Shown here one piece after another: positions 1 through 59,968 of a DNA stretch of 64,000 nt. The stretch covers positions 5,837,246-5,901,245 of the forward strand of contig OZ017770.1 of the NCBI GenBank assembly GCA_963969345.1. The letters are read 5' to 3'. The notes below the pieces were generated by a model, which was given only the letters and a program-made list of their open reading frames with translations, was not told where the DNA came from and ran no database searches. Position 1 is the first letter of the stretch; every line of letters starts with the position of its first letter. The position numbers were made by a program, and so were the translations under genes. This DNA is from Turbatrix aceti. Lineage: Eukaryota; Nematoda; Chromadorea; Rhabditida; Panagrolaimidae.

Positions 1-3000
1 TGTGACAGAAGTTTTCAGCATCACGCCGACTACCTCCAACCCTATATTTGCATAATGGAAGATCTCGTCAACGACCATGCTTCTTCTAGTTCGGGTTGTT
101 CATATTTATGTTTTTTCGTACTCATAGTCACTTGTTTCAGCGGTCATGGGTAATGGGCTAAACGTGTTACGGCGCCCCCTAAATCCTGCCAATAACGGTG
201 AGCCTTTCAGCATCGTTGTCTTTTTTACTTTCTTTTCAGATAAATTTGACATGTCAAATGTCCAACGTGCCTTCAACGAAGCAGCCCAGCCAACAGACAG
301 CAGGATACCCGAAAATGGCACTGCATGGAAGGAGGCTAACCTCTTTGAGCTTAATAACACTATGGTAATTTAAGACCAGGGGAGGATAATTACGAAAAAA
401 AATTGCATTTTAGTCTTTTGAAACCCGCATCCACGAAGCTGGACTCGTAATCAAGAGAACGATGCAGATCCGTAATCCTCAGCTAATTAGAGACCGACAG
501 GCGCAACGAGTGGTACTTGATTGAAGCACGCGCAAAAGTCTAAAAAATTTGTTACAGGTTTATTCACAGTGCATGATTGGCTCAGAGATGACAAAGTGGA
601 TGGCACAGCAGGTTTCGGAGATCCTCCAACAACCCATGCAATCAATTAACAACCTACAAATTATTGGGATGTGGCAGGCACTCATGGAACATCATATTGT
701 CTCTCACATAACGAATGAATCTCAGTTCAAAGATAAATACGTGTTCTACAAATGGACTATCGACGATCCATTTGAGAGTTACTATCGTGCTAGAGGCGAG
801 CATCCCAATATGCAACCTATGCAGACCCCTGGAGGCAACATAATCATTTCGGGCTCCAGTGGCGATGGTCCGGCGACGCGGAGCTTTGAAATACCAGGTT
901 TTACGGATCTGCAAAATACACTGTTTTTTCTGAGCACAATCGGACCTGACTCCTTGTTTCGGATGATACTGACCAAATCGTAAGAATAGACTTTTTTGCA
1001 ACTTTGTTTGCACGCTTTTTTTGTTTTTAGACCGATGGAAAGAAACCCCGAAGAACTCGAGCTGGTTTACGAGGAGTTGCTCCATGTGAAGGCGCTCTCA
1101 CATCTCAGCACCATGGTAAAACGTGAACTGGCGAGTGTCATTCGCTTTGAGCAACACCAATACGCCGGAACCGTCCTTTTTCATCAAGGTGAAGAGGGTA
1201 AGAGCTGGTATATAATTCTGAAGGGCAGCGTCGACGTCAGCATCATAGGCAAAGTGAGTTTTTTTATATATATTGATAGTCGGGTGAAAGAGGGAGCTCT
1301 GCGCTTCCGGTTTGCGTGCATGAGATGTGGCATACGTTTTGCTTTAGGGCGTCGTTTGTACACTGCATGAAGGAGACGATTTCGGAAAGCTGGCACTGGT
1401 TAACGACGTACCAAGAGCGGCTACAATTGCTCTTCGAGAAAATAATTCACAATTTCTACGTGTTGACAAGCTGGATTTTAATAGGTTTGTCGTGTTTGAC
1501 AATTATACTGAGATTGCAGTGACATTTGGGATGTTTAAGGATACTCCGCGATGTTGAGGCGAACACGGTGCGTCTTAAAGAACATGATCAAGACGTTCTG
1601 GTTCTCGAAAAAATCAATCTCTCAGCACCGGGATCATCCAATAGCACGTCACAAAAAAATCAGTGCTGGTTTGTCTCCGACGTTTTTTTCGGAGCGCTCT
1701 GACAAACGTCAATCACTTTTAGTTACTCTGTAATGGCTGGATTTCCGGAGAAGATGCTTGAGTACGTGTTAGAAACACGGATAGATGCTCAGGTGGACGA
1801 GGTTGTACTGGATACCTTTTTGGAAGATTTCATTCTTACGCACATTGTTTACATGCCATCTAGCGGGCTATGTAATTACCTCAAAAATTACTACTCTCGA
1901 CGCGGAGCTACGGTTTGTTTTTGTCTTTTTTTGGTCTCCGAAAACATTTATAAATAATTTTTACCTTTTTCAGGCGTATGGAAAAAATGGCATTGTTGTA
2001 CCCTCTGTTGAAAGTAACTTTGACATCATCCAGCAACATATTGCAAAACGACGAGTCATAACTTTTTTGACTGTTTGGGAAAGCGTTTTTGGTATCCATT
2101 TTTTTCTGGATTCGGTTGTGAATTCTTTTGTCGAAGAAATGTACTGTTGTGTTCTGGAGGATAGCAAGCACATCCCGAACATGATGTCGGTGCTGGATCA
2201 GATCACCGGCCTACGACAGCTAAGAGAGAACGCCATGCGCGTGCTTTCGCGTCCACCGACTTCCATACTCGACTGTGGTGTGTACTCGGCAACTGCTCCA
2301 GCTTCAAGCACAATTCTTCCGATTGATACCTGTGAGTCATGTTTGAGCATATTTGCAAAACTTGACGATTTGATAATTTTTCAGGCAATCAATGCATCTT
2401 TCTCTCGGATACAACTTTCATAACGATGAACATTCGCCTAGACAAGACAGCGTCTGAAATAGCGGATTTGGCACGATGCAAATTGAAGTGCACAAGCACG
2501 CAAGAAGAATGCTTCCTTATCGAAGTCAAATCCAGCGGCGAACGAGTTGTCTTTTCGCCGACAGAAGTTAGCGTTCCGACAATGCTTTCGTTGAATGGGC
2601 GGCTTTATGTCGTCTTCAAAGACGAAATCGACTCATTGGTTTGTCTGCTTCCAGCGAGTGTTTGCATTTTGATTCATTCATGCTCTTCAGACACCAATGC
2701 CCGAGCAAAACGGTCCGTCGGATATGAACTATCACTCGGTGCTAGACTTGATGGGTAGCACAGAAGTAGCACAACAACTTTGCACTTTTCATATGCAACT
2801 TTTTGAGGCCACCGACGAGATCGAGCTAATTTTTCAAGTAAGATTAGCACATCTGTCGTGACAGGCTTAAAGTGATTTTTTTAGGTTATTGGCAGAGATC
2901 AGTTCCCAGGAAGAATACCTGCAAATCTTGATATATTGCTCAGACGCTTCAATGAAGTACAATACTGGGCAACGACCGAAGTCCTTCTCGCGGGTTCTGC

Positions 3001-22100: not shown

Positions 22101-22241
22101 ATTTTTTTTGCATCCTATGTACGTGCTGCGCGACGAGTAAATTTGTAAGGACCTTAATCAGGTGTTTTTACCTTCAGGAATTAACCTTCACCCAGAAGTT
22201 GGCAATACAACTGCGCAGAGAGTCCGTTATCGCTAGAAGTA
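19182..22241. other. Divergent intergenic region between MOB3 and the phosphate transporter
   Basis: Three kilobases between diverging genes. From 19,350 to 20,900 the base composition is richer in G and C than elsewhere, with overlapping ORFs on both strands (19354-19908 minus, 19644-19979 plus) and a short CGGCTG-type repeat near 20515-20535. None resembles a protein I recognise, and their overlap on opposite strands argues that most are chance. A possible small gene at 21184-21438 is listed separately. The part near 22178 probably holds the transporter 5' UTR, since an acceptor-like CCTTCAG ends at 22177. Confidence 0.4.
21184..21438 (-). CDS. Possible small protein, 84 aa, unrecognised
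   Basis: A single-exon ORF starts with ATG in a good context (AAAATGG) and ends at 21184, with AATAAA on the minus strand only a few bases after the stop. The residues read MVLLEIVNRTFIYKFRQSAK at the start, followed by a Lys/Asn-rich middle, a short hydrophobic patch (LCFWWVV) and a Val/Ser-rich C-terminal half. I do not recognise it. The mixed composition is more protein-like than that of nearby chance ORFs, and the closely placed polyA signal is suggestive, but no homology supports it. Confidence 0.25.
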   Translation of the reverse strand: MVLLEIVNRTFIYKFRQSAKKNTAALFSDPIKQNKQKIENLCFWWVVQTDGVGVGVKDLVSTPVDIISSSVTDMISFCTGISLN

Positions 22242-24126
22242 ATGATTGCGGATCTTTCTGCCTTTCAAGCTGACACGCTATGGACGATCTTTGTCGGATT
22301 TGCAATAGCTTTTATTCTCGCCTTTGCCATCGGCGCGAACGACACGGCCAATTCCTTCGGCACGAGTGTTGGAAGCAAGGTGCTGACGCTTTACCAAGCC
22401 TATGTGCTGGCTAGTATTTTTGAATCATTGGGAGCGGGTCTATTAGGTAAGACGATTTTTTCTCCTAAACACCGAGTAAATATATCTTTTTTAGGATATA
22501 AAGTAACAGATACAATGAGAAAAGGAGTCATCGACTTGTCTTTATACAAAGACAACGAACTTGAACTCATGCTCGGCCAAATCAGTGTGCTAACAGGCTG
22601 CGGAGCCTGGCTGCTGATCGCAACTGCTTTCAAGCTCCCGGTGTCTACTACGCACAGTATCGTCGGCGCTACTCTTGGTTACTCGATGCTTCTTCGAGGC
22701 ACGGAGGGCATTAGATGGACCAAAGTTACCAACATTTTCTTTTCTTGGATTCTTTCTCCTGTACTTTCGGGTATCGTATCAATCATAATCTACGGCTTTA
22801 TTGCTCAAACCGTTCTTCGGCGAGCGCATCCCCTGAAATGCGGTCTGATTTTACTTCCTATTTTGTATTTCATTTGCATTTCTGTCAACGTTTTTGCAAT
22901 TATCTACGATGGAACATCATGTGAGAATTTTGTGCATTCCAAAGCGGTGTTTACCCGATTTTTTTTAGATCTGGGTTTCGACAAATGGGAACTGTGGCAG
23001 GTGGTTCTTGCAAGCTGTGGCACCGGTGTCATCGTCGCTGGTTTCGTGCATTTCTTTGCGTCTCATCGAATTAAGCGATGGATCATCGGTAAGACAAATG
23101 ACCCCTGTTTTTTGAAGTACAACAAATTATGATCGTTTCAGCTACTACGCCTGATAATGATGCTGACAGCGACTTGAAGGTGATTGTTCCCCCACCGATG
23201 GTGATTCATCAACCTGGCGCGAAGCCTATCATTAACGGTGTTCATTCGGAATCAACTCGCGCGTTACTCAAAGATGACGGCAATAAGCACTCGCCTTCGC
23301 CCCCGAAAGTGGGTGTACCAGTTTCTACGATTGAGCATCATAAGAATGATAAAAGTAAGCAGTTTTTCGGTGTCTATCACGGTGATACTTTGATTTGCAG
23401 AAAAAACATGTCTGATTGACTTTTTCCGATTCCATGGTCCAGAAGATCAGAGAGCATCCAAGCTGTTCAACTTTTTACAAATCCTGACAGCTTGTTTCGG
23501 TGGCTTTGCCCACGGAGGAAACGATGTCAGCAATGCGATCGCTCCTCTGGCATCACTTTACTCCATTTACATGGAAGGCTCTGTGACGCAGGCAGGCCAA
23601 ACACCTGTCTACCTGTTGGCTTTCGGAGCAGCAGGCATGTGCGTTGGTCTGTGGATTCTCGGTTATCGCGTTATCTATACAGTCGGCGAGAATTTGACTA
23701 AGATCACGCCGCCAAGGTAAACAAAACATACATCACTGATAAGTTTTGATCATTCAACTTTTTTAGCGGCTTTGCTATTGAATTTGGCGCCGCGGTCACA
23801 GTGCTTGCAGCCAGCAAGATGGGTCTACCAATCAGCTCTACTCAATGCAAAGTAAGGACATATTGCATTAGAATTAAACCAATCCACGTTTTTCAGATTG
23901 GAAGTGTCGTCGCCGTGGGTCTGATCCACTACGGAAACTCTGCTGTTCAATGGCACACTTTCCGAAACATCGCTCTCTCTTGGATTATAACTCTGCCTGT
24001 TACCGGTAAGTGTCCTGCGTCACAGCCTTAAGGGAATCTTCTAGTGTCTTAATTAATAATTAATCGTTTTTTGCAGGAGTTCTCAGTGCATTGGTTATGC
24101 TTGTGCTGCGCGCCATCGCTCTCTAA
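22242..24126 (+). CDS. Sodium-dependent phosphate transporter, PiT/SLC20 family
   Basis: This is an inorganic phosphate/sodium symporter of the plasma membrane. Both PiT signatures are present: the N-terminal repeat ([20 protein letters not shown], with [18 protein letters not shown]) and the C-terminal repeat ([20 protein letters not shown], with [20 protein letters not shown]). These inverted repeats form the transport core. About ten hydrophobic segments are seen. A hydrophilic intracellular loop (about 23143-23440, rich in Pro, Asp, His and Lys) lies between the halves, as in animal PiT-1/2. The second exon starts just after 22493 and later exons start near 23142, 23400, 23768, 23898 and 24077. 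The stop is TAA at 24124-24126. The first likely polyA signal is at 24646, implying a 3' UTR of about 0.5 kb. C. elegans has several paralogues (pitr genes), so no single symbol is assigned. Confidence 0.95.
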
Positions 24127-37580: not shown

Positions 37581-40139
37581 CTGTGTTTGGGTTAGACTTT
37601 TACGGGAATGTACAATAGTCAATAAATTTAAGTTTATTATCCAACGTTTTTCTCCTGAATCACAGGGATACGGGAAGTTTCTTCTTTCTGCACATTCTTG
37701 CAAAGTGGTCAGCGTAATTTCCAGTTGTTTGCATTAAAAATGCCACATTTTTGTTGCAGCTTTTCTGAGTTAACTAGGGGGGATTGATTGCATGTTGTCG
37801 GGGCCGTAAATCAAGGAGTAACCCAGTTACAATATCCCAAAGAGCAGTGCGGGTACCTCGTGATACGAAAATATTTATTTGCTAGTTGTATAGCAGGGCA
37901 CATGATCCCGAGTCGCAATCAAACACAATGAAAAAAAAAGTAATCGAAAGTCGAGTATCCCTTGCTGGGTAAATTTAAGCTCCCGCTTGTGTCTATCTAG
38001 GGAGAGCCAGCCGCAGTTGTCGCAGCTGGCGGCAACGGATCTACCATCGTCAATGTGCGTCTCGACGAAACAGCACGCAGACACGAGAGAGAGAATGAGA
38101 GCGTGTTTGTCTGACAGTCAGTCGTTGTCGTTCGTCACGACTCCAGCGAGATCCTAGTGGGACGTTGCTCGCAAAACGCGATGTCGTTGCCAGCATGTAC
38201 TTGATGTAGTTGTGCGTTTTGCTGTGACACAGTGGTTGTTGCAAAAAAAAAGAAGAATAGCATCTTTTTGTTTCCCCATTTACTGCCTTTTATACCCACA
38301 GTTCGACCATTGGCATTGTTTGTCGCCTTGTTATATGACTCAGTGCCAGAGCTCTTCAACGCCGCGCTAATCTTTTGTCCATCTCTGCCTCGTTTGGCAA
38401 TTGATTGGTCCACCATCCCCGGCGGCGAAAAGTGTGAGCTGGCTCTGCTTCGCGAACAGAACAGCTAGCTGACTAGAGTTGCGGTGAATTCATTCTTCTC
38501 GCGCACCTTTGCCACCTCATCGACGGCCAACCAGCGTCGTTCTTGTCCACTACTGATTGAATTGTCACCTTTGGGTTACAGATTTGCAGCTGTCTTTGCG
38601 GTGATGAAGTGCTGTTCGCGAGTGCATTACCCATCTAGCACAATTTTTGAATTGTCTATTGATTTTTTGGCGACATTTGTCGTTTTACTCGATTCACGCA
38701 CACCTGTACATTGGGTCGTGTTTTTGTCATCATTTTTTAAATAGATGACAATTTTAATTCATTTTGCGAATGCGCAAAACCGGAGAGTGGTTTTTCATTC
38801 ATTCGTTCATTACCAAATGCAAATTTCGGTTTGCCGGGTTTTCCCTTCCTCCTGTAAAACGTGTCGTGACTCCGTCATGCACACCATACATTAGTTATTG
38901 AGGTTACAAATAAGTTTGGTCGGTCAACTATTGTGTCGCGCACTCCGCGTGGTACGAACATGAAAATTGACAATGTCACCACCACACCGCACAGTTTTCG
39001 CCCCTCTAGACTGCTGCCCGAGGTTGTAATTTTTTGTTATGAGCCAATTTATGTCACTGGACAACTACAATGTTAGTTGAAAACGGAATCTGTTTTAGGG
39101 AAGGAATATTTCTTGCTATTGGTTTTCTTGTATCAGTGTTGTCCCTGTTTTGCGCGTTGGAAGAAAACAATGGAGTTTGTTGGTTGGATAGAGACATGTG
39201 TAGGTCAATAGTAAGCATGAGGGTTCGTTGAAGTCGAGAAGCACAAAGCAAGTCGTTTGCTTTTGTCAAAACAAGAATGGAGGATGATTCTTAGCCAGTA
39301 TTTCACATTACTCAGAAGTTTGTGAAAAAAAAGAGATATCCTGGAATGCGCTTTGAATATTTGTTTTGGAACCGCAAGGATTTCTGCAGCGCTCCATCCA
39401 TGATGACAATGATTTCGAAACCGTGGTTGGAGCAGCTGGCTGCACAGAGAAGAGACTCACGCTGTCTTTCATCTTTAGACGTGGTGGCCGCCAGTAATTT
39501 CGAGCGACTTGCTTGTGGAGGAAAAAATTCATTTTATTCGCGCGCGTGTGCGTTTTGCGTGTTCAATTTCATCTCAATCGCTTGGCCTGATTTAAACGTA
39601 AAATATCAAAAAATTGGATCGTTTTCAGTATCCATCCAGTAATCGAGTGGTTGCACGTTGCCGGGGCAACGCGACAGTCCTACAGTGCCTCGCGCATTGC
39701 TGGTTCCTATTGAGTTCAACAGGGTAGGTCGTGACATTTCATACGTTCGTGCGATCGATTCTTGCGCCAGTATTCATCGCTGCACCTTGCTATGAATCAT
39801 CTGCTAGGTACAGCCTGGTGAAAGGCGTTTTTTAAAAAGCAATAATCAAGAAAGCATTTTACGTTTTTTTTCGGAGGCGATTAAACGCTGTGAATACTAT
39901 GCTGGCGTGAGTTGGCAGTTAAAAAAAACTACAGCGAAAAACGTCAAAGAACGAACGGAATAAAAAACCCTATTTTATATCAAATGTGGAAGTTTACGCA
40001 GATGTTAATTCCGCTGCGAAAACGTTCATCGATAAAAATAGACGAAACCTAATCAGAAAAATTCATTCGAGTTATTTTCCCGGCCGACAAATATAGAATT
40101 CTGTGACTCATTAGTTTTTTTTAGATACGGGTATAAAAA
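37581..40139. other. Intergenic region upstream of kinesin
   Basis: It holds the LRIG-like 3' UTR (AATAAA 37621-37626) and the kinesin promoter. ORFs at 38232, 38484 and 39322 are unrecognised. A perfect palindromic X-box-like site lies at 39656-39671. A TTTTTTTTAG acceptor ends at 40124, fifteen bases before the kinesin ATG. Confidence 0.45.
39656..39671. promoter_or_regulatory. X-box-like RFX/DAF-19 site (perfect palindrome)
   Basis: CGTTGCCGGGGCAACG is a perfect 16-base inverted repeat. It fits the RFX consensus of GTTGCC, a two-base spacer and GGCAAC. It lies about 470 bases upstream of the kinesin ATG. In C. elegans such boxes mark DAF-19-regulated ciliary genes, though usually closer to the start. 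Use here is not shown. Confidence 0.45.
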
Positions 40140-43100
40140 ATGGCGAATCCATCTGAGTGCTGCATTCAGGTATGTTGCCGTGTTCGGCCACTAAACGACA
40201 TTGAAAAATCAAACGGGTCACAATTTATTCCTAAATTCATCAACAAAGATGGTATTTCTATAGGTGTAAGTTGTTTTGTTTCAATGAAAGTCCTTGATTA
40301 ACGATATATTTTTTTCTACAGGGAAAAACTTTCCTTTACGACGCTGTTTTTGATCCGTCATATTCGCAAGAGCAAGTGTATCAAAACTCGGCTTACCATA
40401 TTGTCCAGGATGTCCTCAGTGGCTACAACGGTACGGTCTTTGCGTACGGTCAGACGTCTTCCGGTAAGACGCATACGATGGAAGGCGACATCACGGCCAG
40501 CCCTGAGAAGCACGGCATCATTCCACGCATCATCAGTGACATCTTTAACCACATCTACAACATGGAGGATACCAACTTGGAATTTCACATCAAGGTTTCT
40601 TACTTTGAAATTTACAATGAAAAGATTCGAGATTTACTTGACGTTACCAAAACTAACCTGACAATTCACGAAGACAAGAATCGAGTCCCATACGTCAAGG
40701 GAGCGACCGAACAATACGTGACTAACCCGGAAGAAGTCTTCATGGTCATCGGCGAAGGCAAAGCCAACCGACAAGTAGCCGTGACAAGTACGTTTTTTTC
40801 TGCTAGCGCCAGTTTTTATTTATTTGAACTTTTTTTTCAGACATGAACGAGCACAGCTCCAGATCACACTCTGTATTCCAGATTCAGGTTGAGCAGGAGA
40901 ACAAAGCGACGCAAAAGAAACTCACTGGTAAACTGTATTTGGTCGATTTGGCCGGTTCCGAAAAAGTTAGCAAAACCGGCGCCGAAGGTGCGGTGCTCGA
41001 AGAAGCGAAGAACATCAATAAGTCGCTTTCGGCTCTTGGAAACGTCATTTCAGCACTCGCTGAGGGAACTGTGAGTACTTATGACAAGTTTGATTAAATA
41101 TACATTGTAAAATTTTGCAGAAGACCCACGTCCCGTATCGTGACAGTAAACTGACGCGTATTCTGCAAGAATCGCTCGGTGGTAACTCGAGAACAACTAT
41201 CGTTATCTGTTGTTCGCCCGCATCCTGGAACGAAACAGAAACCAAGTCCACGCTTCTCTTCGGTCAGCGTGCCAAGACCATCAAGAACGTTGTCGTCGTC
41301 AACGAAGAACTCACTGCCGAAGAATGGAAGAGACGATACGAGCGCGAACGAGATCGCAATACCAAGCTCAAGTCATTCCTGCAGGCACTCATCACCGAGG
41401 TCAAACGACATCGAGCTGGGGAACGTGTTCCAGAATCGGAATATGCAACTGTCGGCGACGATCAGCAGTTAACAGAGTCTACCGTCATGACACCATCCAT
41501 GACGGAGTCTACATTCCCTCTGGAGAACGTTCCCGCCGCTCCTGCCGCGCAGCCGTTGCTCAGCTCGCGCACTGGACCTCTCAGCGATGAAGAACGGCGC
41601 AAATACGAGGAAGAACGCTCCAAGCTATACCAGCAGTTGGATGAGAAGGACGACGAGATCCAGATGCAATCCCAGATCAGCGAACAGCTCAAGCAGCAGC
41701 TCGCGGAGCAGGATGACCTCATCAAGCAGACTCGTGCCGAATACACTCAGGCGATGAACGACCTCCAGAGTGCCCAAGTCGAGCTCGACAAGAACCACGA
41801 CGAAGCGGACGAAATGTTTGCTGCAATTCAGGAGGTTGCCATGAACTTGGAGCAGAAGAAGGGCGAAGTCGAACACCTCGCCAAGGAAAACGACAAGCTT
41901 TCCGAAGACTTCAACAAAATGAACCTCGAAGTCATGCAGGCCAACACTCGCGTGGATGAGTACCGCCAGATGCTCAACACGCAGAAGAAGAAGGTCTTTG
42001 AATCAATCCAGGCTATGCTACGCGAATTCAACGAGTTGGGAAGCAATTACCCCATCCCAGAAAAGTTCACTGCCGACTTTAACGAAAACGATCGCATCAT
42101 GGACGACGAGTTGCTGGCACACGCCAGGATCTGCATGTCCAAGCTGGCTACTGATTACAAGACCGTTCAGCAGAAAGCCAGCGAACTGCAAAACGGAACC
42201 GGTGATGTCGAGAAGAAACTCGAAACTTTGCAATCGGAGTTGTCGACTTGCCGTCTGGAGCAGCAGCAGCTTGAGGTCAAAAACAAGTCTCTACAGGAGA
42301 CGATTGACGCTCAAGAGAAAGCCAAGAGAACTCTAGAAGACGATCTTTTCTTGCTCAACTCCAGGCTTGAAACAACCGGCGCATCTGCTGAGCCCAACAG
42401 CGACCACCAGAAAGTCGTGGCCCAACTTCGGGATCAGATTGCCGAGAAGAACAACCAGATCAAACAGCTTTCGGAGTCCCTCCAGGAACTGCAGCTTACA
42501 AAGGACAAGCTTTCCAACGACCTTGAGAAACTCCGCACTGACGAAGTCGAGAAGGACAAGAAGATCAAGGAACTCACGGCGCGTTCGGACAAGCGAGAGC
42601 AGGCGAAGCAAGATCTGCGTGGTCTCGAAGAGACTGTTCAGAAGGAGCTCCAATCACTGCACAACCTTCGCAAGCTGTTCGTTCAGGACCTCACCCAGAG
42701 AATCCGCAAGAGCACCCAGGGCGACGATGGCGAAGAGGAGTTCACTTCTAGCCTGGCTCTGAGGCAAAAGATTCAGTTCCTGGAGAACAATCTTGAACAA
42801 CTCACTAAGGTTCACAAGAAGCTCGTACGCGACAATGCCGAGCTTCGCTGCGAGCTGCCCAAGCTGGAGAAGCGTCTTCGCGCCAGTATGGAACGCATCA
42901 AGAATCTGGAGAACGCTCTGCGAGACACCAAGGAGAACGCCATGCGTGATCGCCGAAAATACCAGTTCGAAGTCGAGCGCATCAAGGAAGCCGTACGCCA
43001 GCGCAACATGGCACGTCGTGGCTTGGTGGCCAACATTGGTATATATTTTGATTGCTTTACTGTTATCCATTTTTATTACCAACTTTTTTTTTAGCAAAAC

Positions 43101-43183
43101 CAATCCGTCCTGGTCAACATTACCCTCCTGCAATTCCCCAGCGTCCGCCAGGTGAGAATTTAGCCAGTAACGAAAACGTGTGA
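40140..43183 (+). CDS. unc-116: Kinesin-1 heavy chain, 942 aa
   Basis: This is the plus-end-directed microtubule motor of conventional kinesin, which carries vesicles and organelles in axons. Five phase-compatible exons (40140-40265, 40322-40787, 40841-41070, 41121-43038, 43095-43183) give 942 residues. Motor landmarks are CRVRPLND, the P-loop [13 protein letters not shown], switch [12 protein letters not shown], switch [19 protein letters not shown] and [14 protein letters not shown]. The neck is [17 protein letters not shown] long coiled-coil stalk follows, and the tail holds the autoinhibitory motif [12 protein letters not shown], completed across the last intron and ending [10 protein letters not shown]. 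The length is typical of kinesin-1. A TTTTTTTTAG acceptor is 15 nt before the ATG. The part from 41844 onward is the left copy of a 3.93-kb tandem duplication. Acceptor-like sites after 43150 could give alternative C-termini. AATAAA is at 43518. Confidence 0.97.
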
Positions 43184-45275
43184 TCGAAGTAATGCATTAG
43201 GCTATAATCGTTTTGGTTTTATTTCGCTAACTTTTCTACTTTTTTTTCCAATTTGTTTTTTACTTACGCATGCTTAACCTGGTTTGTTTTTTCAGCACCA
43301 GTCTCGTAACTGGTTTAAGTTCTGTTAAGCTTTGCGTTTTGCATAATACGTACATCTTTCTCTGGTTGCGTCCGGCTGTTATCAAGCGATTTGCTTTCGC
43401 CTACCTTGTTAAAATTTGTGATTGATTAATTTATTCATCCTCGTTCATTTTTTTCACCCTTTGCTTATTTCGCTTACATTGAAAATATTAGTCATGATTT
43501 AACTGTGTTAAAAGCCAAATAAAACAAATAAATTGTTCGAATACAAATGTGTGGATTGAATTGTCCGGTTGAACTGAATGCGTCCCATCGTTTTGCAGCA
43601 GCACGTGAATGCCCCATGACTTTTCCAGTTATGCGTGCATTGGCATTTCCTTACATAAAAACAACAGAGTTCCATATTTGAAGTCCCTTTATCTATCCCC
43701 TCCTGATTGTTTACTTACGATGCGGTCGGTCATCGACTGCCACAACTCCCCAGTCCCTTACTCCTACGTTCTTGTCCAAAATAACCAAGGCACGAAATGC
43801 TGTTATTTTGTCAATAAGCACACTTTATTGTGTTGCGTGACGACTAGGCTGGAGGAACGTTTAACTGGTTACTTCTACAATGGCACTGACGTCATGCTGT
43901 GTTTTTGGCACACAACACTTCTGGCACGGCACGTGTAAGTACTTTCGTGCGCTTTGTAGTGTACCACCGACCACGGGGGCGTTGGTATGTTATGCTGTAT
44001 CACGTTACCCACCCCTCCACTTACACATCCTTCTTAAGGATACAGTAGCTAATCCGTGTGAGCTTATACATAAATAAATCATTCTCACCTGGTTTGGAAG
44101 AAATGACAGAGACATGGAACTAATCCAGTTTTTTTGTGAAATATCAATTAGCATGACAAGATGGAATCCCTACTGAACGAAGCTTCGTATTCAGAATCTG
44201 ACGTTCTTGAACTTAGACGGTGACTTAACCAGTCCTGAAGTGCAACTCGTTTAGACGACCCGCCGCCTGTGTCGGCACCTGCAACAGATACGACTTTCTC
44301 AACGGCAGATACCATATCATCAGTGATGTTCATTGTTTGAGCTGAACCTTTTTTGAAATCGTTTGTATTTTTGCTATCTGAGCTTATTTTTTTATACTTA
44401 TAATATATCCGTTCAGATTTGTATGCTAAGTGATGTGTAGGTTTTTTTTCGATTTATTGTGTTTGGATTAGTCATAAATTATTATACTTGAGCGTTTGAT
44501 GAGCAAGTTTTGATGCGTATACGCGGGCGACACAAGTACGATTAATGCTTTCCAAGTTACCCCAATTTTAGCAATTCTCTGGCACATCGTTGGTCGCACA
44601 CACATTCGATATACGCAAATTACTTCCGATGTGACGCGGAGCTTCGCCAAGGTATTTTTTGATTCTTGAAAGCATATTTTGTTTCCAAGAGTGGCTTAAT
44701 TTAGGCGGCAGTGACGACGTGCCGTGTTGCAGCGGCCCCCGCATGTCAAGATTGCCGACGGCAAGTCATCAACGGCAAGTCCGCGGACCCCGCATGAATT
44801 AATACTTTGTGAAGATAAAAGCAGCGTACGCTCACTCAGAAAGGCCGGGTGACTGACTAATGCCCAAGTTCGCAAAATGAAATTTAAAAAAAAAACAATG
44901 CGGTGTATGCAACAGATTTATTGTGATAGTGCCGAGTTTATTACAAACGTTGGATAACAACCAAACGAGGGATGTGTTAAAGAATTCAAATGCGGGTAAT
45001 AGGAGAGAGTTTTAACTGCCTGTCGCCTCGAATCGCCTTTTTTGGGGTGGGGGGGGGAATGAAATTGGTCGTTGTTTTGACGCTGTGCACGCTGCTTGCC
45101 TTCGAAGAAAGAGATACCATAAATTGAGATAATGCTGTGGGCACGCATAATCAAAAATGCCGATTGGAAATAACATAACTGCGCCTGGTGTTTGTGGTAG
45201 AAGGTGCTGAATTCTGAGTGGAATAAATAACTTGTTGTCTTGCGAAAAATAGAGCGAGTATGCGAGATGCTTTGT
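43184..45275. other. Intergenic DNA between kinesin and IDA-1 fragments (left copy)
   Basis: It contains the kinesin 3' UTR and polyA signal (43518-43523) and, on the minus strand, AATAAA signals at about 44917-44922 and 44937 for the adjacent IDA-1 fragment. Short ORFs (43609, 44148, 44918) are identical in the right copy because of the duplication, so their repetition is not evidence of function. Confidence 0.6.
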
Positions 45276-45772
45276 TTAATGCTGAATAGCCTTGATGAGA
45301 GAAGTGACTTCTTCTGCTACGCAACTGAAGACTAGGTTATACTGCTCGCTGTTGGCAACTAGATAAGGGCGCTGGTCGCGGATGTGCTCGAGCGAAGCCG
45401 CGATGTCAATTTCCTTGACACCCTTGTTGATGCGGTTGGTGACAACGTCGATGAGACAGTATGTTCCAGCTCGGCCGGTGCCGTCAAGATCGTGCACCAG
45501 GATGGGTGACGAGCGTCCGCGGTACGACTTGTTCACCTTGCTGAAAAAAAATACTTTCACTATTATCTTTTTTTTTTAAATCTCACCGTCTGAACTCAAG
45601 CAACGACTTGTTGGACTCCGGAACGGATCCCTTTGGCCAGCTAAGGTAGTGGAACTGCGTGACCGTGCGTGTTTCGCCTGTCTTCAGCAGCTTGAGGTAG
45701 AACGACCGTACAACGTAGTCTTCGCTCCAGATGTGCTCCGAAACGAGGTTCACTTCAAACGAGCCGTAAACC
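45276..45772 (-). pseudogene. IDA-1 3' fragment (duplicated)
   Basis: Two exon pieces (45772-45588 and 45560-45276) encode the C-terminal half of the phosphatase-like domain, including [20 protein letters not shown], the pseudo-active-site [13 protein letters not shown] and the end SLIKAIQH. The sequence matches IDA-1 at 49205-49699. The 5' part is missing because the duplication breakpoint cuts the exon at 45772, so it has no signal peptide, lumenal domain or membrane span. The reading frame is undamaged, which suggests recent origin. It continues in frame on the minus strand into antisense kinesin sequence up to an ATG at 45975 (see findings). Confidence 0.9.
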
Positions 45773-45975
45773 AACTTGGAGCAGAAGAAGGGCGAAGTCG
45801 AACACCTCGCCAAGGAAAACGACAAGCTTTCCGAAGACTTCAACAAAATGAACCTCGAAGTCATGCAGGCCAACACTCGCGTGGATGAGTACCGCCAGAT
45901 GCTCAACACGCAGAAGAAGAAGGTCTTTGAATCAATCCAGGCTATGCTACGCGAATTCAACGAGTTGGGAAGCAA
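45583..45975 (-). other. Chimeric ORF across the duplication junction (antisense kinesin plus IDA-1)
   Basis: On the minus strand an ATG at 45975 opens a frame through about 200 bases of antisense kinesin stalk sequence ([20 protein letters not shown] at its start), crosses the junction at 45773/45772, and joins in frame the IDA-1 exon ([16 protein letters not shown]). It could splice on to the last IDA-1 exon. Whether it is transcribed is unknown; no promoter is evident. Confidence 0.35.
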
Positions 45976-47112
45976 TTACCCCATCCCAGAAAAGTTCACT
46001 GCCGACTTTAACGAAAACGATCGCATCATGGACGACGAGTTGCTGGCACACGCCAGGATCTGCATGTCCAAGCTGGCTACTGATTACAAGACCGTTCAGC
46101 AGAAAGCCAGCGAACTGCAAAACGGAACCGGTGATGTCGAGAAGAAACTCGAAACTTTGCAATCGGAGTTGTCGACTTGCCGTCTGGAGCAGCAGCAGCT
46201 TGAGGTCAAAAACAAGTCTCTACAGGAGACGATTGACGCTCAAGAGAAAGCCAAGAGAACTCTAGAAGACGATCTTTTCTTGCTCAACTCCAGGCTTGAA
46301 ACAACCGGCGCATCTGCTGAGCCCAACAGCGACCACCAGAAAGTCGTGGCCCAACTTCGGGATCAGATTGCCGAGAAGAACAACCAGATCAAACAGCTTT
46401 CGGAGTCCCTCCAGGAACTGCAGCTTACAAAGGACAAGCTTTCCAACGACCTTGAGAAACTCCGCACTGACGAAGTCGAGAAGGACAAGAAGATCAAGGA
46501 ACTCACGGCGCGTTCGGACAAGCGAGAGCAGGCGAAGCAAGATCTGCGTGGTCTCGAAGAGACTGTTCAGAAGGAGCTCCAATCACTGCACAACCTTCGC
46601 AAGCTGTTCGTTCAGGACCTCACCCAGAGAATCCGCAAGAGCACCCAGGGCGACGATGGCGAAGAGGAGTTCACTTCTAGCCTGGCTCTGAGGCAAAAGA
46701 TTCAGTTCCTGGAGAACAATCTTGAACAACTCACTAAGGTTCACAAGAAGCTCGTACGCGACAATGCCGAGCTTCGCTGCGAGCTGCCCAAGCTGGAGAA
46801 GCGTCTTCGCGCCAGTATGGAACGCATCAAGAATCTGGAGAACGCTCTGCGAGACACCAAGGAGAACGCCATGCGTGATCGCCGAAAATACCAGTTCGAA
46901 GTCGAGCGCATCAAGGAAGCCGTACGCCAGCGCAACATGGCACGTCGTGGCTTGGTGGCCAACATTGGTATATATTTTGATTGCTTTACTGTTATCCATT
47001 TTTATTACCAACTTTTTTTTTAGCAAAACCAATCCGTCCTGGTCAACATTACCCTCCTGCAATTCCCCAGCGTCCGCCAGGTGAGAATTTAGCCAGTAAC
47101 GAAAACGTGTGA
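45773..47112 (+). pseudogene. Kinesin-1 3' fragment (duplicated)
   Basis: This repeats the kinesin stalk and tail from residue [18 protein letters not shown] to the C-terminal [10 protein letters not shown], with the last intron intact. There is no motor domain, and the fragment begins in mid-codon context at the junction, with no native start codon. The first in-frame ATG is well inside ([14 protein letters not shown]). No frame-disrupting change is visible by eye compared with 41844-43183. It is probably a non-functional by-product of the tandem duplication, although a headless stalk protein could be made if a promoter were nearby. Confidence 0.9.
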
Positions 47113-49204
47113 TCGAAGTAATGCATTAGGCTATAATCGTTTTGGTTTTATTTCGCTAACTTTTCTACTTTTTTTTCCAATTTGTTTTTTACTTACGCAT
47201 GCTTAACCTGGTTTGTTTTTTCAGCACCAGTCTCGTAACTGGTTTAAGTTCTGTTAAGCTTTGCGTTTTGCATAATACGTACATCTTTCTCTGGTTGCGT
47301 CCGGCTGTTATCAAGCGATTTGCTTTCGCCTACCTTGTTAAAATTTGTGATTGATTAATTTATTCATCCTCGTTCATTTTTTTCACCCTTTGCTTATTTC
47401 GCTTACATTGAAAATATTAGTCATGATTTAACTGTGTTAAAAGCCAAATAAAACAAATAAATTGTTCGAATACAAATGTGTGGATTGAATTGTCCGGTTG
47501 AACTGAATGCGTCCCATCGTTTTGCAGCAGCACGTGAATGCCCCATGACTTTTCCAGTTATGCGTGCATTGGCATTTCCTTACATAAAAACAACAGAGTT
47601 CCATATTTGAAGTCCCTTTATCTATCCCCTCCTGATTGTTTACTTACGATGCGGTCGGTCATCGACTGCCACAACTCCCCAGTCCCTTACTCCTACGTTC
47701 TTGTCCAAAATAACCAAGGCACGAAATGCTGTTATTTTGTCAATAAGCACACTTTATTGTGTTGCGTGACGACTAGGCTGGAGGAACGTTTAACTGGTTA
47801 CTTCTACAATGGCACTGACGTCATGCTGTGTTTTTGGCACACAACACTTCTGGCACGGCACGTGTAAGTACTTTCGTGCGCTTTGTAGTGTACCACCGAC
47901 CACGGGGGCGTTGGTATGTTATGCTGTATCACGTTACCCACCCCTCCACTTACACATCCTTCTTAAGGATACAGTAGCTAATCCGTGTGAGCTTATACAT
48001 AAATAAATCATTCTCACCTGGTTTGGAAGAAATGACAGAGACATGGAACTAATCCAGTTTTTTTGTGAAATATCAATTAGCATGACAAGATGGAATCCCT
48101 ACTGAACGAAGCTTCGTATTCAGAATCTGACGTTCTTGAACTTAGACGGTGACTTAACCAGTCCTGAAGTGCAACTCGTTTAGACGACCCGCCGCCTGTG
48201 TCGGCACCTGCAACAGATACGACTTTCTCAACGGCAGATACCATATCATCAGTGATGTTCATTGTTTGAGCTGAACCTTTTTTGAAATCGTTTGTATTTT
48301 TGCTATCTGAGCTTATTTTTTTATACTTATAATATATCCGTTCAGATTTGTATGCTAAGTGATGTGTAGGTTTTTTTTCGATTTATTGTGTTTGGATTAG
48401 TCATAAATTATTATACTTGAGCGTTTGATGAGCAAGTTTTGATGCGTATACGCGGGCGACACAAGTACGATTAATGCTTTCCAAGTTACCCCAATTTTAG
48501 CAATTCTCTGGCACATCGTTGGTCGCACACACATTCGATATACGCAAATTACTTCCGATGTGACGCGGAGCTTCGCCAAGGTATTTTTTGATTCTTGAAA
48601 GCATATTTTGTTTCCAAGAGTGGCTTAATTTAGGCGGCAGTGACGACGTGCCGTGTTGCAGCGGCCCCCGCATGTCAAGATTGCCGACGGCAAGTCATCA
48701 ACGGCAAGTCCGCGGACCCCGCATGAATTAATACTTTGTGAAGATAAAAGCAGCGTACGCTCACTCAGAAAGGCCGGGTGACTGACTAATGCCCAAGTTC
48801 GCAAAATGAAATTTAAAAAAAAAACAATGCGGTGTATGCAACAGATTTATTGTGATAGTGCCGAGTTTATTACAAACGTTGGATAACAACCAAACGAGGG
48901 ATGTGTTAAAGAATTCAAATGCGGGTAATAGGAGAGAGTTTTAACTGCCTGTCGCCTCGAATCGCCTTTTTTGGGGTGGGGGGGGGAATGAAATTGGTCG
49001 TTGTTTTGACGCTGTGCACGCTGCTTGCCTTCGAAGAAAGAGATACCATAAATTGAGATGGTGCTGTGGGCACGCATAATCAAAAATGCCGATTGGAAAT
49101 AACATAACTGCGCCTGGTGTTTGTGGTAGAAGGTGCTGAATTCTGAGTGGAATAAATAACTTGTTGTCTTGCGAAAAATAGAGCGAGTATGCGAGATGCT
49201 TTGT
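47113..49204. other. Intergenic DNA between kinesin fragment and IDA-1 (right copy)
   Basis: It repeats 43184-45275. It carries the probable IDA-1 polyA signals on the minus strand (TTTATT at 48846-48851 and 48866-48871), giving a 3' UTR of about 340-360 bases, and the duplicated kinesin polyA signal near 47447. Confidence 0.6.
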
Positions 49205-52200
49205 TTAATGCTGAATAGCCTTGATGAGAGAAGTGACTTCTTCTGCTACGCAACTGAAGACTAGGTTATACTGCTCGCTGTTGGCAACTAGATAAGGGCG
49301 CTGGTCGCGGATGTGCTCAAGCGAAGCCGCGATGTCAATTTCCTTGACACCCTTGTTGATGCGGTTGGTGACAACGTCGATGAGACAGTATGTTCCAGCT
49401 CGGCCGGTGCCGTCAAGATCGTGCACCAGGATGGGTGACGAGCGTCCACGGTACGACTTGTTCACCTTGCTGAAAAAAATACTTTCACTATTATCTTTTT
49501 TTTTAAATCTCACCGTCTGAACTCAAGCAACGACTTGTTGGACTCCGGAACGGATCCCTTTGGCCAGCTAAGGTAGTGGAACTGCGTGACCGTGCGTGTT
49601 TCGCCTGTCTTCAGCAGCTTGAGGTAGAACGACCGTACAACGTAGTCTTCGCTCCAGATGTGCTCCGAAACGAGGTTCACTTCAAACGAGCCGTAAACCT
49701 CTGTGCCTTCAGAGGGCCAGTAGCGTTCTCCTTCGTTCAGCTGGCAGAGGTTGACGAGCAGCGACACACCGTGCTCCCAAACGAGCTGCCAGTAGTCGGC
49801 GATCGTAGCCTCCATCGGCGTTTGCGTGAGGATGTACGCGCAGTGACGGGGGTCGCTGTCATGAATCTTTGATGCATTGATGTAGCCATTGGCAATGCCC
49901 GCAAGGCTCTCATCGTCTGAAATAACATAATTAAAGACGTCCATGTTGCTCCTGGCATCTTACAGGGAATTAGACTTTGATCGCGGTTCTTGTGCACATT
50001 CTGTGGCTCCTGGGCAATGGTCGTCACGGCGTTCGCGTTAAAATAGCCGGAAACAGAAAGCCATTGATCAACAATCTTGCCGGGATTTTCCAAATGCTCT
50101 TTGAGGAAAGACTGCAAAGAATTATTAAACGTATTGCTTTTGACTTTACAAGTGCAATAAATCTTACCAAGATGACGTGGCCGGTGGAAACGTCGAGATT
50201 ACATGTTTGCATGAATCCGTCGTCAGGCCATGACGATGTGCTTGACGTCTTTGAACCACCATTGTTGTTTACCCCCGATGTTCCGGCGACGTCCTGAGTG
50301 TTCATGCGTTGCCGACAGAGGTCCTCGTACGTCGAGGCTGCCTTGCTGTCAAATTGGTCAAAGACTTGCGGCAGAGCAACGTTCAGCGGAGTTTTGCGAT
50401 TTTTGTAGAAATTAGCGGCAAGCACGCTCAGCAGTGTCATGATAGTCAACGAGCAGACAAACAGGATTGGCATGAACATCCAGTCACGTTCTGATTTTTC
50501 AACTGGCACTGTTTCTTGTCCGCTGCCGATGCCGGTTTCATCAACCTGGAGACCAGCGAGGGTCTGGATATCTTTTCTTCGCTTGTAAACGGCTTGGGCA
50601 ACGCCACTGGCACTGTCCATTCTCTTGTCACCGCTCGGCTTGATGTCGTTAAGCCTGACAATTCTGAATGACAGCTGTCCGTCTTCGTACTTGAAGTCAT
50701 CGAAGTAGAGATCGTTGGGCTGGGCAATCTTGCGATCCAAAAATTCAATCAACTTGTCAAGATCTTCGTCGGTGATGTCTTCCTTGGCGACTCGGAGGTA
50801 CACTCGGTTGCCTTCCAGGCGGTGGAAGTCGCCCTTGACGATCTTGTGCACGACGTTGGCCAGGCCCATATCGGCATTGTTGTACTGCTCAATGTCCTTC
50901 TTCAACAAAAGCTGTTGCTCATTGTTCAGCGAAGTTAACGGAACGATTTCTTCAATTTCCGGAGCAGAAATGTCTGAAAAACAGGAAACTTGAAAAATAA
51001 TACTCAGACAGGAAAGGGATTACCTTGGCTCTGCTCGAGCACCTGCTGTAGGGAACCAATGAGTTCAACAATCTTGTTTTGCTGTACAGGCGATAGCTTT
51101 TTGCTTCCGACGTTTCCGGTGTTAAGCACGTCGTGGACGTAGTCGTCGAGTTGATTCTTTTCATCGTTGGTCAATTCAAGCCCCGAGCCGAGGTCACGCT
51201 TTTTTGGTTCTTGTTGAGCTTCCTTAGCCAGTTCATCGACAATTTCCGCCACTTGGTCTTCATTGATATCCGAAGCATCAGCAGGAGCAATGTTATTGTT
51301 TGTCGCATTTACGCTGGGATGTTCATCTGCCTCGATGACTACAGACACGGGCTCGCCGGTTTCTTCCTCCTCAGCGGCGAGTTCCTGCATGAGTTCTTCC
51401 GGACTAACATCTTTCAGAAAAACAACCGGCAAAGCAATGTTGTCTTCGGGGTCAACAAAAAGAACTTGCTGGGCAACTTTGAGGAGCGGCTCTTGTTCTA
51501 CTGCTTCTACTTCCTCAACAGGCGAGAGCGCCGAAGTTTCCAGAATAGGTTCTGAAATTTGAGCTTGTTCGGCTGCTTGTTCTGAGCCTTCAAGGGCTGC
51601 CAGTTGTTCTTCTGTCAGACTTCTTGCTTGCGTTTGGCCTGTCTGAAGTTCTTCGTCGCTGAGGTAACCGTCAGAGTCGGCAAGCATGGCCTGAACGCGC
51701 TGAAATAATAGAATCACAATTTTATATGCATGTCCCAATGAAAAGTGAAAAATCTCACCTGCACCAGAGCCCATACATTAGCTGGATTTCGTACCTTGCA
51801 GAAGTCGACATCATAGTCAAGATCGTATACCACAGCGAGCTTGAAGTACGATAGCACGCACTGCGATGACGCATCTGGCCAGTTAACGTCCTCCCGCGCA
51901 AGTTGGTAAAGATGGAAACGAAGAACGTTCTGTTGTACAGCTGTTAGAGGTTTCTGAATAACGAGCGGCGTGTTGCCGCTTCCCTCGGAGTAGCACTGAC
52001 CAAAAAGCCCGTCTGCAAGACAAAAAAACGACGTGTTTATTTCATTTATGACGCAAAAAATTGAATTACCGTTTAAGCAGATTTCATTTTCATCGCAGAT
52101 TGTACTGTCTAGCGAGCAACCTGAAAAACAAAACAATTGAAGGTTTGGATTACACGGTACTCGTGATTCGTAAAGTTAGAATCGTGCTACCCCATGTTGT

Positions 52201-57310: not shown

Positions 57311-59968
57311 TCAGTTTGCCAGGTGGGGATTTGTATAACTGAAGTTCATGAAAGCTTCGGGATCGATGGATTCCAGAAGAGTTTTGTCCTGAATGGGTGT
57401 AAGTACAGCTTTTTCTTGCGTAAAGTCGTCGTCAAAGTTGGATGTGTCACTTGGAGATTTCTGAAATACAAATTTCATGCATAAAAAATTCATCAAAAAT
57501 ATTGAAATAAAACTTACAACGTTGGGTTTGTAAGGTGGGTGCACGGAACGTGTTTCAAACTTTTTCCAGTCAACGCCACGGAAGAATGAATGCGTTCGGA
57601 TGGGACCATCCGGGCATTCAGGCATACCGAGGCGGGTGTTTGGGTTTCTGTCGAACAGAGCACTCAGACATTTTGCAGCTTCTTTACCCAATGACTTAGG
57701 GAAATAGGGTCGTTCATTGAGGATGGCATCAAAGAGTTCATCTTCACCCTCGCCGTGGAAAGGTGACTGGCCAATGAGCATTTCATACAGCAGAACGCCA
57801 AGAGACCAGAAGTCGACGGCTTCGTTGTACAGCTGACCCTTGATTATTTCTGGAGCTATGTAATCCGGTGTGCCGCAGAATGTTGACGCCATTCCGTTTT
57901 CTCGATTCATCTCTGTCTTGCACATACCAAAATCGGCTAAATGTATGTGGCCTTCGGAGTCTAGCAAAATGTTATCCAGCTTAAGGTCGCGGTAGATGAT
58001 CGCCTTGCTGTGCAAAAATTGAAGGGCAACAATGATTTCACAGGCATAAAAACGCGTTCTGGCTTCGTCAAATCTCTTTACTTGCTGGATGTGATACATC
58101 AGGTCGCCGCCGTTCAAGTATTCCATAACAAAAAATAGGTATTCCTGAAATGGGGGATTTGGCATGAAGCAGATTAACGCGGATGAACTAAAACCTACGT
58201 TTGTTTGAAAGGAGCAAAACAACTGGCATAAAAATGGACACTCGTGTGAAAGAATTAGAACCCGTCGTTCAATAAATGTGCATTCGGTGTCGTCGTCTTC
58301 CAAGATAACATCTTTTTTCAGACATTTCATAGCATAATAACGACTTTGATTTCGGAGTTCGACCAGAAGAACTTTTCCGAAAGATCCTTTACCGAGCACT
58401 TTGAGAATATTGAAATGCTGAAGCTTGTACCTCTTAATTGGCCCTTCGCCACCCGACCAGATGCTGTTCATGTACCTGCAAATCAAATCCCCAGTTTTTA
58501 GGAATCAGAGACACTTCAACCCACTCTTCTGATTTCTGTTGTTCAGAGTAGTTGTGATTCTTGAACAGAGCCTTGAACTTGGAACCGACGCCATTGGTTA
58601 ACGGCGTTGAAGGTTTTTCGGACGAACTAGTACTTACAGAAAGGTTTGAGAGATTGGGAGGAGTACTTGTTGCAGAATGAGTGGTGTTACCCCGCTTGAT
58701 CTCGAGCAGTGCATCTGATAGCTGCTTCTGATTTACACCACATAAATTGGGCATGCGCTTCTGGCACTTGTGATGACAATTGACGCCGCATACTTCGCAT
58801 TTGAGGCCTTGCTTGAATAATCCATACAACAGAGAACCGCAGTGATCACAAAATGTCGGGCTTTTGAAGTTATATTGTTTAAACCGGTGAGGCACGTCGA
58901 TTTTAAACCGTTCCTTGAGGTACTAAAAATTTTTTTGTAATTCAAAATTGCGCATTTAAAAAAAAAGACATACGATAGTATCTTTCGTGTTTTTGGCCGA
59001 TCCGGGGCATTGAAACAGCGTCTTTTCGTGGCATTTTTTGTGAACAGCAGCAGAACACAACTGACATTGGTAGCCCTGTTTGTTTAAACCCCTGCAACAA
59101 AGCACAAACCGTGAAACTGGTTAGAAACTAAGCCGCAGGAATGACTAACCACATAAATTCGGAACATAGTGAGCAGAAAGTTGGTTGGCGAAAAAAGGTA
59201 GCTACAAAATGATGACCCCGTATTTCATGGATTCGTTGATGCTTGATGGCACCGCGTCGCCGTTGCAGACCCAGGTTGGGTTCAAATCCGTGAGGCACCA
59301 TGCTTGAATCATCGGCACTACCGATTTTGCGTGTCTGCGCAAGAATGCGACCACATGGCTTAAGGTTGATCCAGATGTGGGTGACGGCGTCGTGCTTGCA
59401 CTTTGTTATTACGTCCTGAGAGCGTTAAATTAATTGTTTAAGCCTTTGTCTTGAATAACAGACTCGTTTTATCGGAGTCTTGAAAGCTCACCTCTAATCT
59501 CATTGTGGCATCAGCAATTGGCGCCTTCTCATGCATTAGCATTACCTGTAGTACCCGGCCAGGTAGGATGCCAACATCAAAGCACTTATCCCAGTCAATG
59601 TACATTGTTTTGCGTTTTTGAATCAGTCTGTTCTCGCCTGAAAGATAAATTCCATTAAACAAGCTTGCTTTGTCGATCTGCAGCACAATAAAATGTTTAA
59701 TGCTTTCTGGCAGGCAAATCAACATGCATAAAACTCAAAATAGCTCACCATTGACTTCGACCTTTTCCTTAACGTTAACAGCGCAATTTAGATCGGAAGT
59801 TTGAGCACCCTTTGGTAGGTTTTCATCGGGAATTTCTGAGTGTAGAAATTTGAGCCGACACACGGCTTCCGGCTGGGCCATCTTGAACGGATCGTCGGAG
59901 TTTGGCCCGACGTCGCTCTCCACGAGCACCGTTTCAAGGAGGTCTTCCAATGGAAAGAGATCGTGGAT
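57311..59968 (-). CDS. tpa-1: Novel protein kinase C, delta type (TPA-1-like), 5' end uncertain
   Basis: This is a diacylglycerol/phorbol-ester-responsive, calcium-independent Ser/Thr kinase. In order: a C2-like domain ([20 protein letters not shown]), a pseudosubstrate with Ala at the phospho-site ([13 protein letters not shown]), C1A ([26 protein letters not shown]) and C1B ([37 protein letters not shown]), a Ser/Thr-rich hinge, and the kinase domain ([34 protein letters not shown], activation-loop [14 protein letters not shown]). The tail has a Thr-Pro turn site (VLTPIQ) and the hydrophobic motif FMNFSY. C2 and C1 features place it with PKC delta/theta. ATG 59881 gives a complete C2. However, the frame stays open to an acceptor (CATTTTAG) before 59968, so an upstream exon beyond is likely in a longer isoform. 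Stop TGA is at 57311-57313, with AATAAA at 57178-57183. Confidence 0.95.

What the first reader, a model, noticed from the sequence alone, without database searches (positions are those of the whole stretch)
41844..49699. Near-identical 3.93-kb tandem duplication joining the 3' ends of kinesin-1 and IDA-1
Two abutting direct copies (41844-45772 and 45773-49699) differ by only about four substitutions and two one-base homopolymer indels seen by eye. The unit starts inside a kinesin exon and ends inside an IDA-1 exon, yet because the genes converge both full-length genes survive at the outer edges. The junction (GTAAACC meeting AACTTGG) has no clear microhomology. It is either a very recent structural mutation or an assembly artefact from two haplotypes.
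Basis: seen in the sequence. Interest (0 to 1): 0.8.

Follow-up and report, generated by a model that had tools for sequence, protein, structure and literature searches.

The report
Recent tandem duplication of gene ends
A nearly 4,000-letter stretch of a roundworm chromosome is present twice in a row, probably an ordinary recent copying mistake that leaves both neighbouring genes whole, although an assembly error cannot be ruled out without the raw reads.

Summary
A search of the 59.93-Mb, 28-contig nematode assembly found only these two copies. The junction has 0 bp homology, no insert, no N.

Best reading: a real, recent, end-joined tandem duplication of ordinary size for nematodes, probably neutral, leaving two 5'-truncated gene ends back to back. 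An assembly artefact stays possible, since no reads were available; absence of a gap and of flanking repeats speaks against the commonest artefact routes.

It is not alone: 264 contiguous kb hold three multi-kb direct duplications whose units are over 99.8% identical, one with a mosaic repeat resembling unequal crossing-over. Two further 40-kb samples hold none of that kind.

The parts
41844..45772 (.). Copy 1 of the 3.93-kb unit (3929 bp)
45773..49699 (.). Copy 2 of the unit (3927 bp)
45772..45773 (.). Duplication junction: 0 bp homology, no inserted base
   Evidence: junction-spanning sequence found once in the assembly
40140..43183 (+). Kinesin-1 heavy chain coding region, five exons spliced by hand, 942 aa; left flank plus copy 1; unit starts at residue 516
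45773..47112 (+). Orphan kinesin 3' end in copy 2 (from residue 516, no motor domain; first in-frame ATG at 45848)
49205..49950 (-). C-terminal PTP part of the IDA-1/IA-2-type gene; frame runs unbroken across the right edge 49699/49700 (the whole gene model was not built)
45276..45772 (-). Orphan IDA-1 3' end in copy 1 (same protein reading as copy 2)
45131..45568 (.). 438-bp stretch holding every difference between the copies (counterpart in copy 2: 49060-49495)
49698..49715 (.). Perfect 6-bp-stem, 6-base-loop inverted repeat at the right breakpoint; weak, found after the fact

Best explanation
A real, recent head-to-tail tandem duplication of 3.93 kb in a nematode chromosome, made by joining non-homologous ends. 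Likely route (inferred): a broken or stalled end copied about 3.9 kb from its sister or homologue and was then joined, without homology, to the other end. The genes at both edges are kept; the middle carries two 5'-truncated fragments (a motorless kinesin end and an IDA-1 end) pointing apart. I expect no phenotype, and later decay or loss by recombination between the copies. Shown: anatomy, junction, number of copies found, kinesin coding region whole, IDA-1 frame unbroken across the right edge. Inferred: that it exists in the animal, the route, neutrality.
For: Exact head-to-tail copies with one novel junction. No N, inside an 11.37-Mb contig. No repeat at the edges or dispersed copy of the unit that could make an assembly graph loop. 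The two coding differences leave the protein unchanged, the rest are outside the coding blocks, as for natural variants. Size and partial-gene content match C. elegans: spontaneous duplications 1-30 kb (PMC4673709, passages), median duplicate span 1.4 kb and about half of young pairs partial or chimeric (PMC2728529, passages). Another tandem duplication nearby has a largely crossing-over-like mosaic.
Against: No reads, depth or second isolate could be examined. The junction lacks the microhomology that marks theta-mediated duplications in C. elegans, and that study saw no tandem duplication in 240 wild-type generations (PMC7368036, passages). The clustering of all differences, including two homopolymer lengths, near the end of copy 1 would also fit poor consensus near a contig end. 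Two synonymous changes are weak evidence.
Confidence: 0.68

Rival explanations
1. Assembly artefact: two haplotypes or two overlapping contig ends were laid side by side, and the gap was wrongly filled or not marked.
For: Differences cluster near the end of copy 1 and include two homopolymer lengths. The blunt junction is what a random join gives 56% of the time with equal base use. False duplications can also be connected by incorrect gap filling (PMC9516828, passages). Three near-identical arrays within 264 kb could point to a local assembly problem.
Against: No gap between the copies, which is the usual sign (PMC9516828, passages). No repeat that would make a graph loop. The AA/GG doublet and two transitions do not look like the homopolymer errors of long reads (inference).
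Confidence: 0.24
2. Real duplication in which the copies come from two different homologues (unequal inter-homologue event), so the differences are old allelic variants. This overlaps the best explanation.
For: Differences are clustered rather than spread and the coding ones are synonymous.
Against: No population data; conversion between copies after the event would give the same pattern.
Confidence: 0.3
3. Junction reads come from a 3.93-kb extrachromosomal circle of this locus that was built into the contig.
For: A circle of the unit would carry the same end-to-start junction (inference).
Against: The assembled path enters and leaves through both unique flanks; nothing else suggests a circle.
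Confidence: 0.03
4. Unequal crossing-over between flanking direct repeats.
For: A mosaic resembling this occurs nearby at C6:5688140-5702888.
Against: 0 bp homology at the edges of this unit.
Confidence: 0.01

Closest known systems
Spontaneous tandem duplications of C. elegans (PMC4673709, PMC2728529, passages)
   Same: Head-to-tail, kilobase size (1-30 kb in mutation accumulation), cutting through genes to leave partial copies.
   Different: Two convergent genes are cut at once, so no sense fusion arises; existence in the animal not shown here.
Polymerase theta-dependent tandem duplications of brc-1/brd-1 mutants (PMC7368036, PMC8078821, passages)
   Same: Single new junction, no long homology.
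   Different: Those junctions are marked by microhomology and occasional insertions and most are about 10-20 kb; here 0 bp, no insertion, 3.9 kb.
False duplications in genome assemblies (PMC9516828, passages)
   Same: Adjacent near-identical copies cutting genes.
   Different: No gap between the copies; depth and read pairs not testable here.

Membership tests
Tandem segmental duplication | Two abutting head-to-tail copies with one novel junction between otherwise collinear flanks | tested here: met
Tandem segmental duplication | Junction present in genomic DNA (spanning reads, doubled depth or PCR) | not testable with these tools
   no reads held
Assembly false duplication | Gap between the copies | tested here: not met
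   no N in the window; a wrongly filled gap would not show
Assembly false duplication | Half or lower read depth, discordant pairs, one-copy k-mers in reads | not testable with these tools
   no reads held
Repeat-mediated unequal crossing-over | Homologous direct repeats at the two edges | tested here: not met
   0 bp at the breakpoints; longest word shared within 60 bp is 7 bp, out of register
Theta-mediated end joining | Microhomology or templated insertion at the junction | tested here: not met
   0 bp, no insertion
Fork-stalling at an inverted repeat (helq-1-like) | Inverted repeat at a breakpoint | tested here: inconclusive
   one 6-bp-stem hairpin at the right edge (such hairpins cover 4.9% of the window, GC-rich ones 0.56%); fold energy reached by 33 of 400 GC-matched windows; no inverted repeat of 40 bp or more at 41000-50500
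IA-2/IDA-1 receptor-type PTP | PTP domain closest to PTPRN/PTPRN2, with altered active-site cysteine | tested here: met
272.7 and 271.7 bits against 227.4 for the next chain; Asp aligned to the PTPRN chain's Cys.

The most novel reading that the evidence does not exclude
This lineage, or this part of its chromosome, forms or keeps kilobase tandem duplications at an unusually high rate (three in 264 kb with units over 99.8% identical, by at least two routes: end joining here, unequal crossing-over at C6:5.69 Mb). It would be a natural tandem-duplicator genome, perhaps with altered break repair.
Probability: 0.08. Interest if true: 0.5.

Novelty: new member of a known kind. Interest (0 to 1): 0.17.

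Why it matters
Mainly as a caution: partial tandem copies like this can give annotation pipelines spurious second kinesin and IDA-1 genes. If real, it is a snapshot of a young duplication before decay. If the local density of such duplications is real, the genome would suit a study of how tandem duplications arise and disappear.

Tried and rejected
Homologous repeat at the edges: none. Mobile element or structured RNA in the unit: the unit was found nowhere else in the assembly; no Rfam family reached its gathering score at 40000-52000. Inverted repeats of 40 bp or more at 41000-50500: none. Exceptional folding at the right edge: 0 of 100 kinesin-exon windows were as low, but 33 of 400 GC-matched windows were, so dropped. 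Species identification: kinesin and COX1 (best row 96% identical, without a name) give only relatives; two paper searches did not lead me to the assembly. The array at C6:5.69 Mb as a dispersed LTR element: its 1.6-kb segment was found only at those three places, although an ORF in the unit has weak, below-cut-off PNMA and DUF7083 matches. Repeated Pfam scan of the orphan kinesin frame added nothing.

Full report
WHAT IS THERE. The window is C6:5837246-5901245 of a 59,928,900-base, 28-contig assembly; C6 is 11,373,813 bases long. A 30-base TTAGGC pattern matches 1337 times forward and 365 times reverse; the places listed (a capped list) lie near the end of C4 (start 11,624,954 of 11,625,588). 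Kinesin relatives with names are nematodes at 69-74% among the top twelve rows (Halicephalobus, Aphelenchoides, Ditylenchus, Panagrolaimus, Acrobeloides, Panagrellus); four unnamed rows reach 75-76%. So the host is a tylenchine-like nematode (inference); the species was not identified. Self-comparison of the window returns one repeat pair over 60 bp, the pair reported. The unit was found twice in the assembly and nowhere else.

GENES. The + strand gene, spliced by hand on GT..AG sites, gives 942 codons in five exons, 40140-43183, ending inside copy 1. The unit begins at residue 516 in exon 4. The - strand gene has a PTP domain closest among solved structures to PTPRN and PTPRN2 (272.7 and 271.7 bits; next 227.4), with Asp aligned to the PTPRN chain's Cys in the HC..DG.GR motif (the motif's catalytic role is recalled). 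Its stop codon is at 49205 in copy 2 and at 45276 in copy 1, with the same protein reading, and its frame runs unbroken across the right edge; I did not build the whole gene. The middle of the array holds a 5'-truncated IDA-1 end on the - strand (up to 45772) and a 5'-truncated, motorless kinesin end on the + strand (from 45773; stop-to-stop frame 417 aa, first in-frame ATG at 45848, residue 541). Both copies keep AATAAA-type signals downstream of both stops. No promoter was sought. Survival of the genes at both edges is a property of any tandem duplication whose edges fall in different genes; convergence only prevents a sense fusion (geometry).

DIFFERENCES. Five events (doublet AA/GG, two single transitions, two homopolymer lengths; six columns) lie within 438 bp near the end of the unit; the first 3287 aligned columns are identical. 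Random placement gives this in 7.4e-4 of trials for five events, 8.4e-5 for six columns and 0.027 for the three substitution events. The doublet lies beyond the IDA-1 stop codon; the two single changes lie in IDA-1 codons and leave the protein unchanged; the homopolymers lie between the last two coding blocks, in what reads as an intron. This fits variants brought in from a homologue, or conversion of the rest, or consensus errors near a contig end. I cannot separate these.

MECHANISM. Neither flank base matches at the junction and nothing is inserted; a random join would be as blunt 56% of the time with equal base use. Repeat-mediated crossing-over is therefore not the route. In C. [quoted passage not shown] none was seen in 240 wild-type generations; the authors favour extension of one broken end on the sister chromatid followed by end joining (PMC7368036, passages). 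I adopt the extension-then-joining outline and leave the joining pathway open. The right breakpoint lies at the foot of a perfect 6-bp hairpin (49698-49715). Such hairpins cover 4.9% of the window, and those with four or more G/C pairs in the stem 0.56%. Duplications embedded in inverted repeats are known from helq-1 mutants (PMC8078821, passages), but here the hairpin was found after the fact, no inverted repeat of 40 bp or more was found at 41000-50500, and the fold energy is reached by 33 of 400 GC-matched windows.

REAL OR ARTEFACT. Features of false duplications named in PMC9516828 (passages) are low depth, gaps between copies, discordant pairs and one-copy k-mers. Only the gap could be tested and it is absent; a wrongly filled gap would leave no N, and that paper reports such cases. 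A repeat-collapse loop in an assembly graph needs a repeat at the edges, and none was found. I put 0.68 on a real duplication and 0.24 on an artefact. The rival of an origin between homologues (0.30) is largely a special case of a real duplication, so these figures overlap.

BACKGROUND. I sampled 344 kb of the 59.93 Mb: 264 kb contiguous on C6 (200 kb upstream plus the window) and two 40-kb stretches. The 264 kb hold three multi-kb direct duplications whose main alignments exceed 99.8%: this one (99.847%); one at C6:5688140-5702888 with period 6557 bp and a 1.6-kb segment present three times (99.854%; its first and third segments are 99.27% identical); and a 3673-bp unit that runs off the left end of the sample (99.953%). 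The last continues to C6:5632615 and has two further matches in opposite orientation near C6:5.49 Mb. The 40-kb samples at C4:3.00 Mb and C6:2.00 Mb hold none of that kind; they do hold a 1.37-kb pair at 89.8% and a 539-bp pair at 98.0%, neither abutting. In the 6557-bp array the differences between first and second unit lie only in the 1.6-kb segment. The middle segment matches the third at the five sites up to offset 192, the first at 502 and 657, the third again at 676, and the first from 1207 on. Apart from that out-of-order stretch (one private change in the first segment at 676, or two in the third, would explain it) this is the mosaic expected of unequal crossing-over, as described for a 1031-bp repeat in C. 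elegans (PMC4673709, passages). So the reported duplication is not alone, and at least one neighbour bears a mostly biological signature.

LITERATURE. Seven paper searches were made and five papers were seen, in passages only. Spontaneous C. elegans duplications of 1-30 kb (PMC4673709; it gives a median of 2 kb in one place and 7.2 kb in another), a median duplicate span of 1.4 kb and about half of young pairs partial or chimeric (PMC2728529) make this an ordinary example.

VERDICT. Observation confirmed; interpretation partly right; an ordinary kind of structural variant, or less likely an assembly error, of low interest unless the local density of duplications proves real.

Noticed in passing
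G000:C6:5688140-5702888 (L009-L010): Tandem duplication of a 6557-bp unit with a 1.6-kb segment present three times; the 4.9 kb between segments is identical in both units, and the middle segment is a near-perfect mosaic of the outer two (one stretch out of order), as after unequal crossing-over. A C2-domain ORF and a weakly gag/PNMA-like ORF lie in it.
   Followed up: partly
G000:C6:5632615-5647255 (L004, start of L005): Array of a 3673-bp unit, over 99.9% identical between units, with internal 0.4-kb repeats; related sequence in opposite orientation at C6:5488696-5491482. No Pfam match in the two ORFs scanned.
   Followed up: partly
window 49698-49715: Perfect hairpin (6-bp stem, 6-base loop) whose foot coincides with the right breakpoint of the duplication.
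   Followed up: partly
window 43095-43310: The last kinesin coding exon holds a GT donor and a possible downstream acceptor (about 43298) that could give an alternative short C-terminus; read by eye, not tested.
   Followed up: no
G000:C28 (L024): Mitochondrial contig; the best COX1 relative (96%) is an unnamed ENA record on a 3999-bp contig, so a near relative seems to have been sequenced without a name.
   Followed up: no
window 22185-23132 (+); 57311-58922 (-); 525-983 (+): Other genes: PHO4-type phosphate transporter; a C1-domain protein kinase of PKC type; a DEP-domain protein.
   Followed up: no
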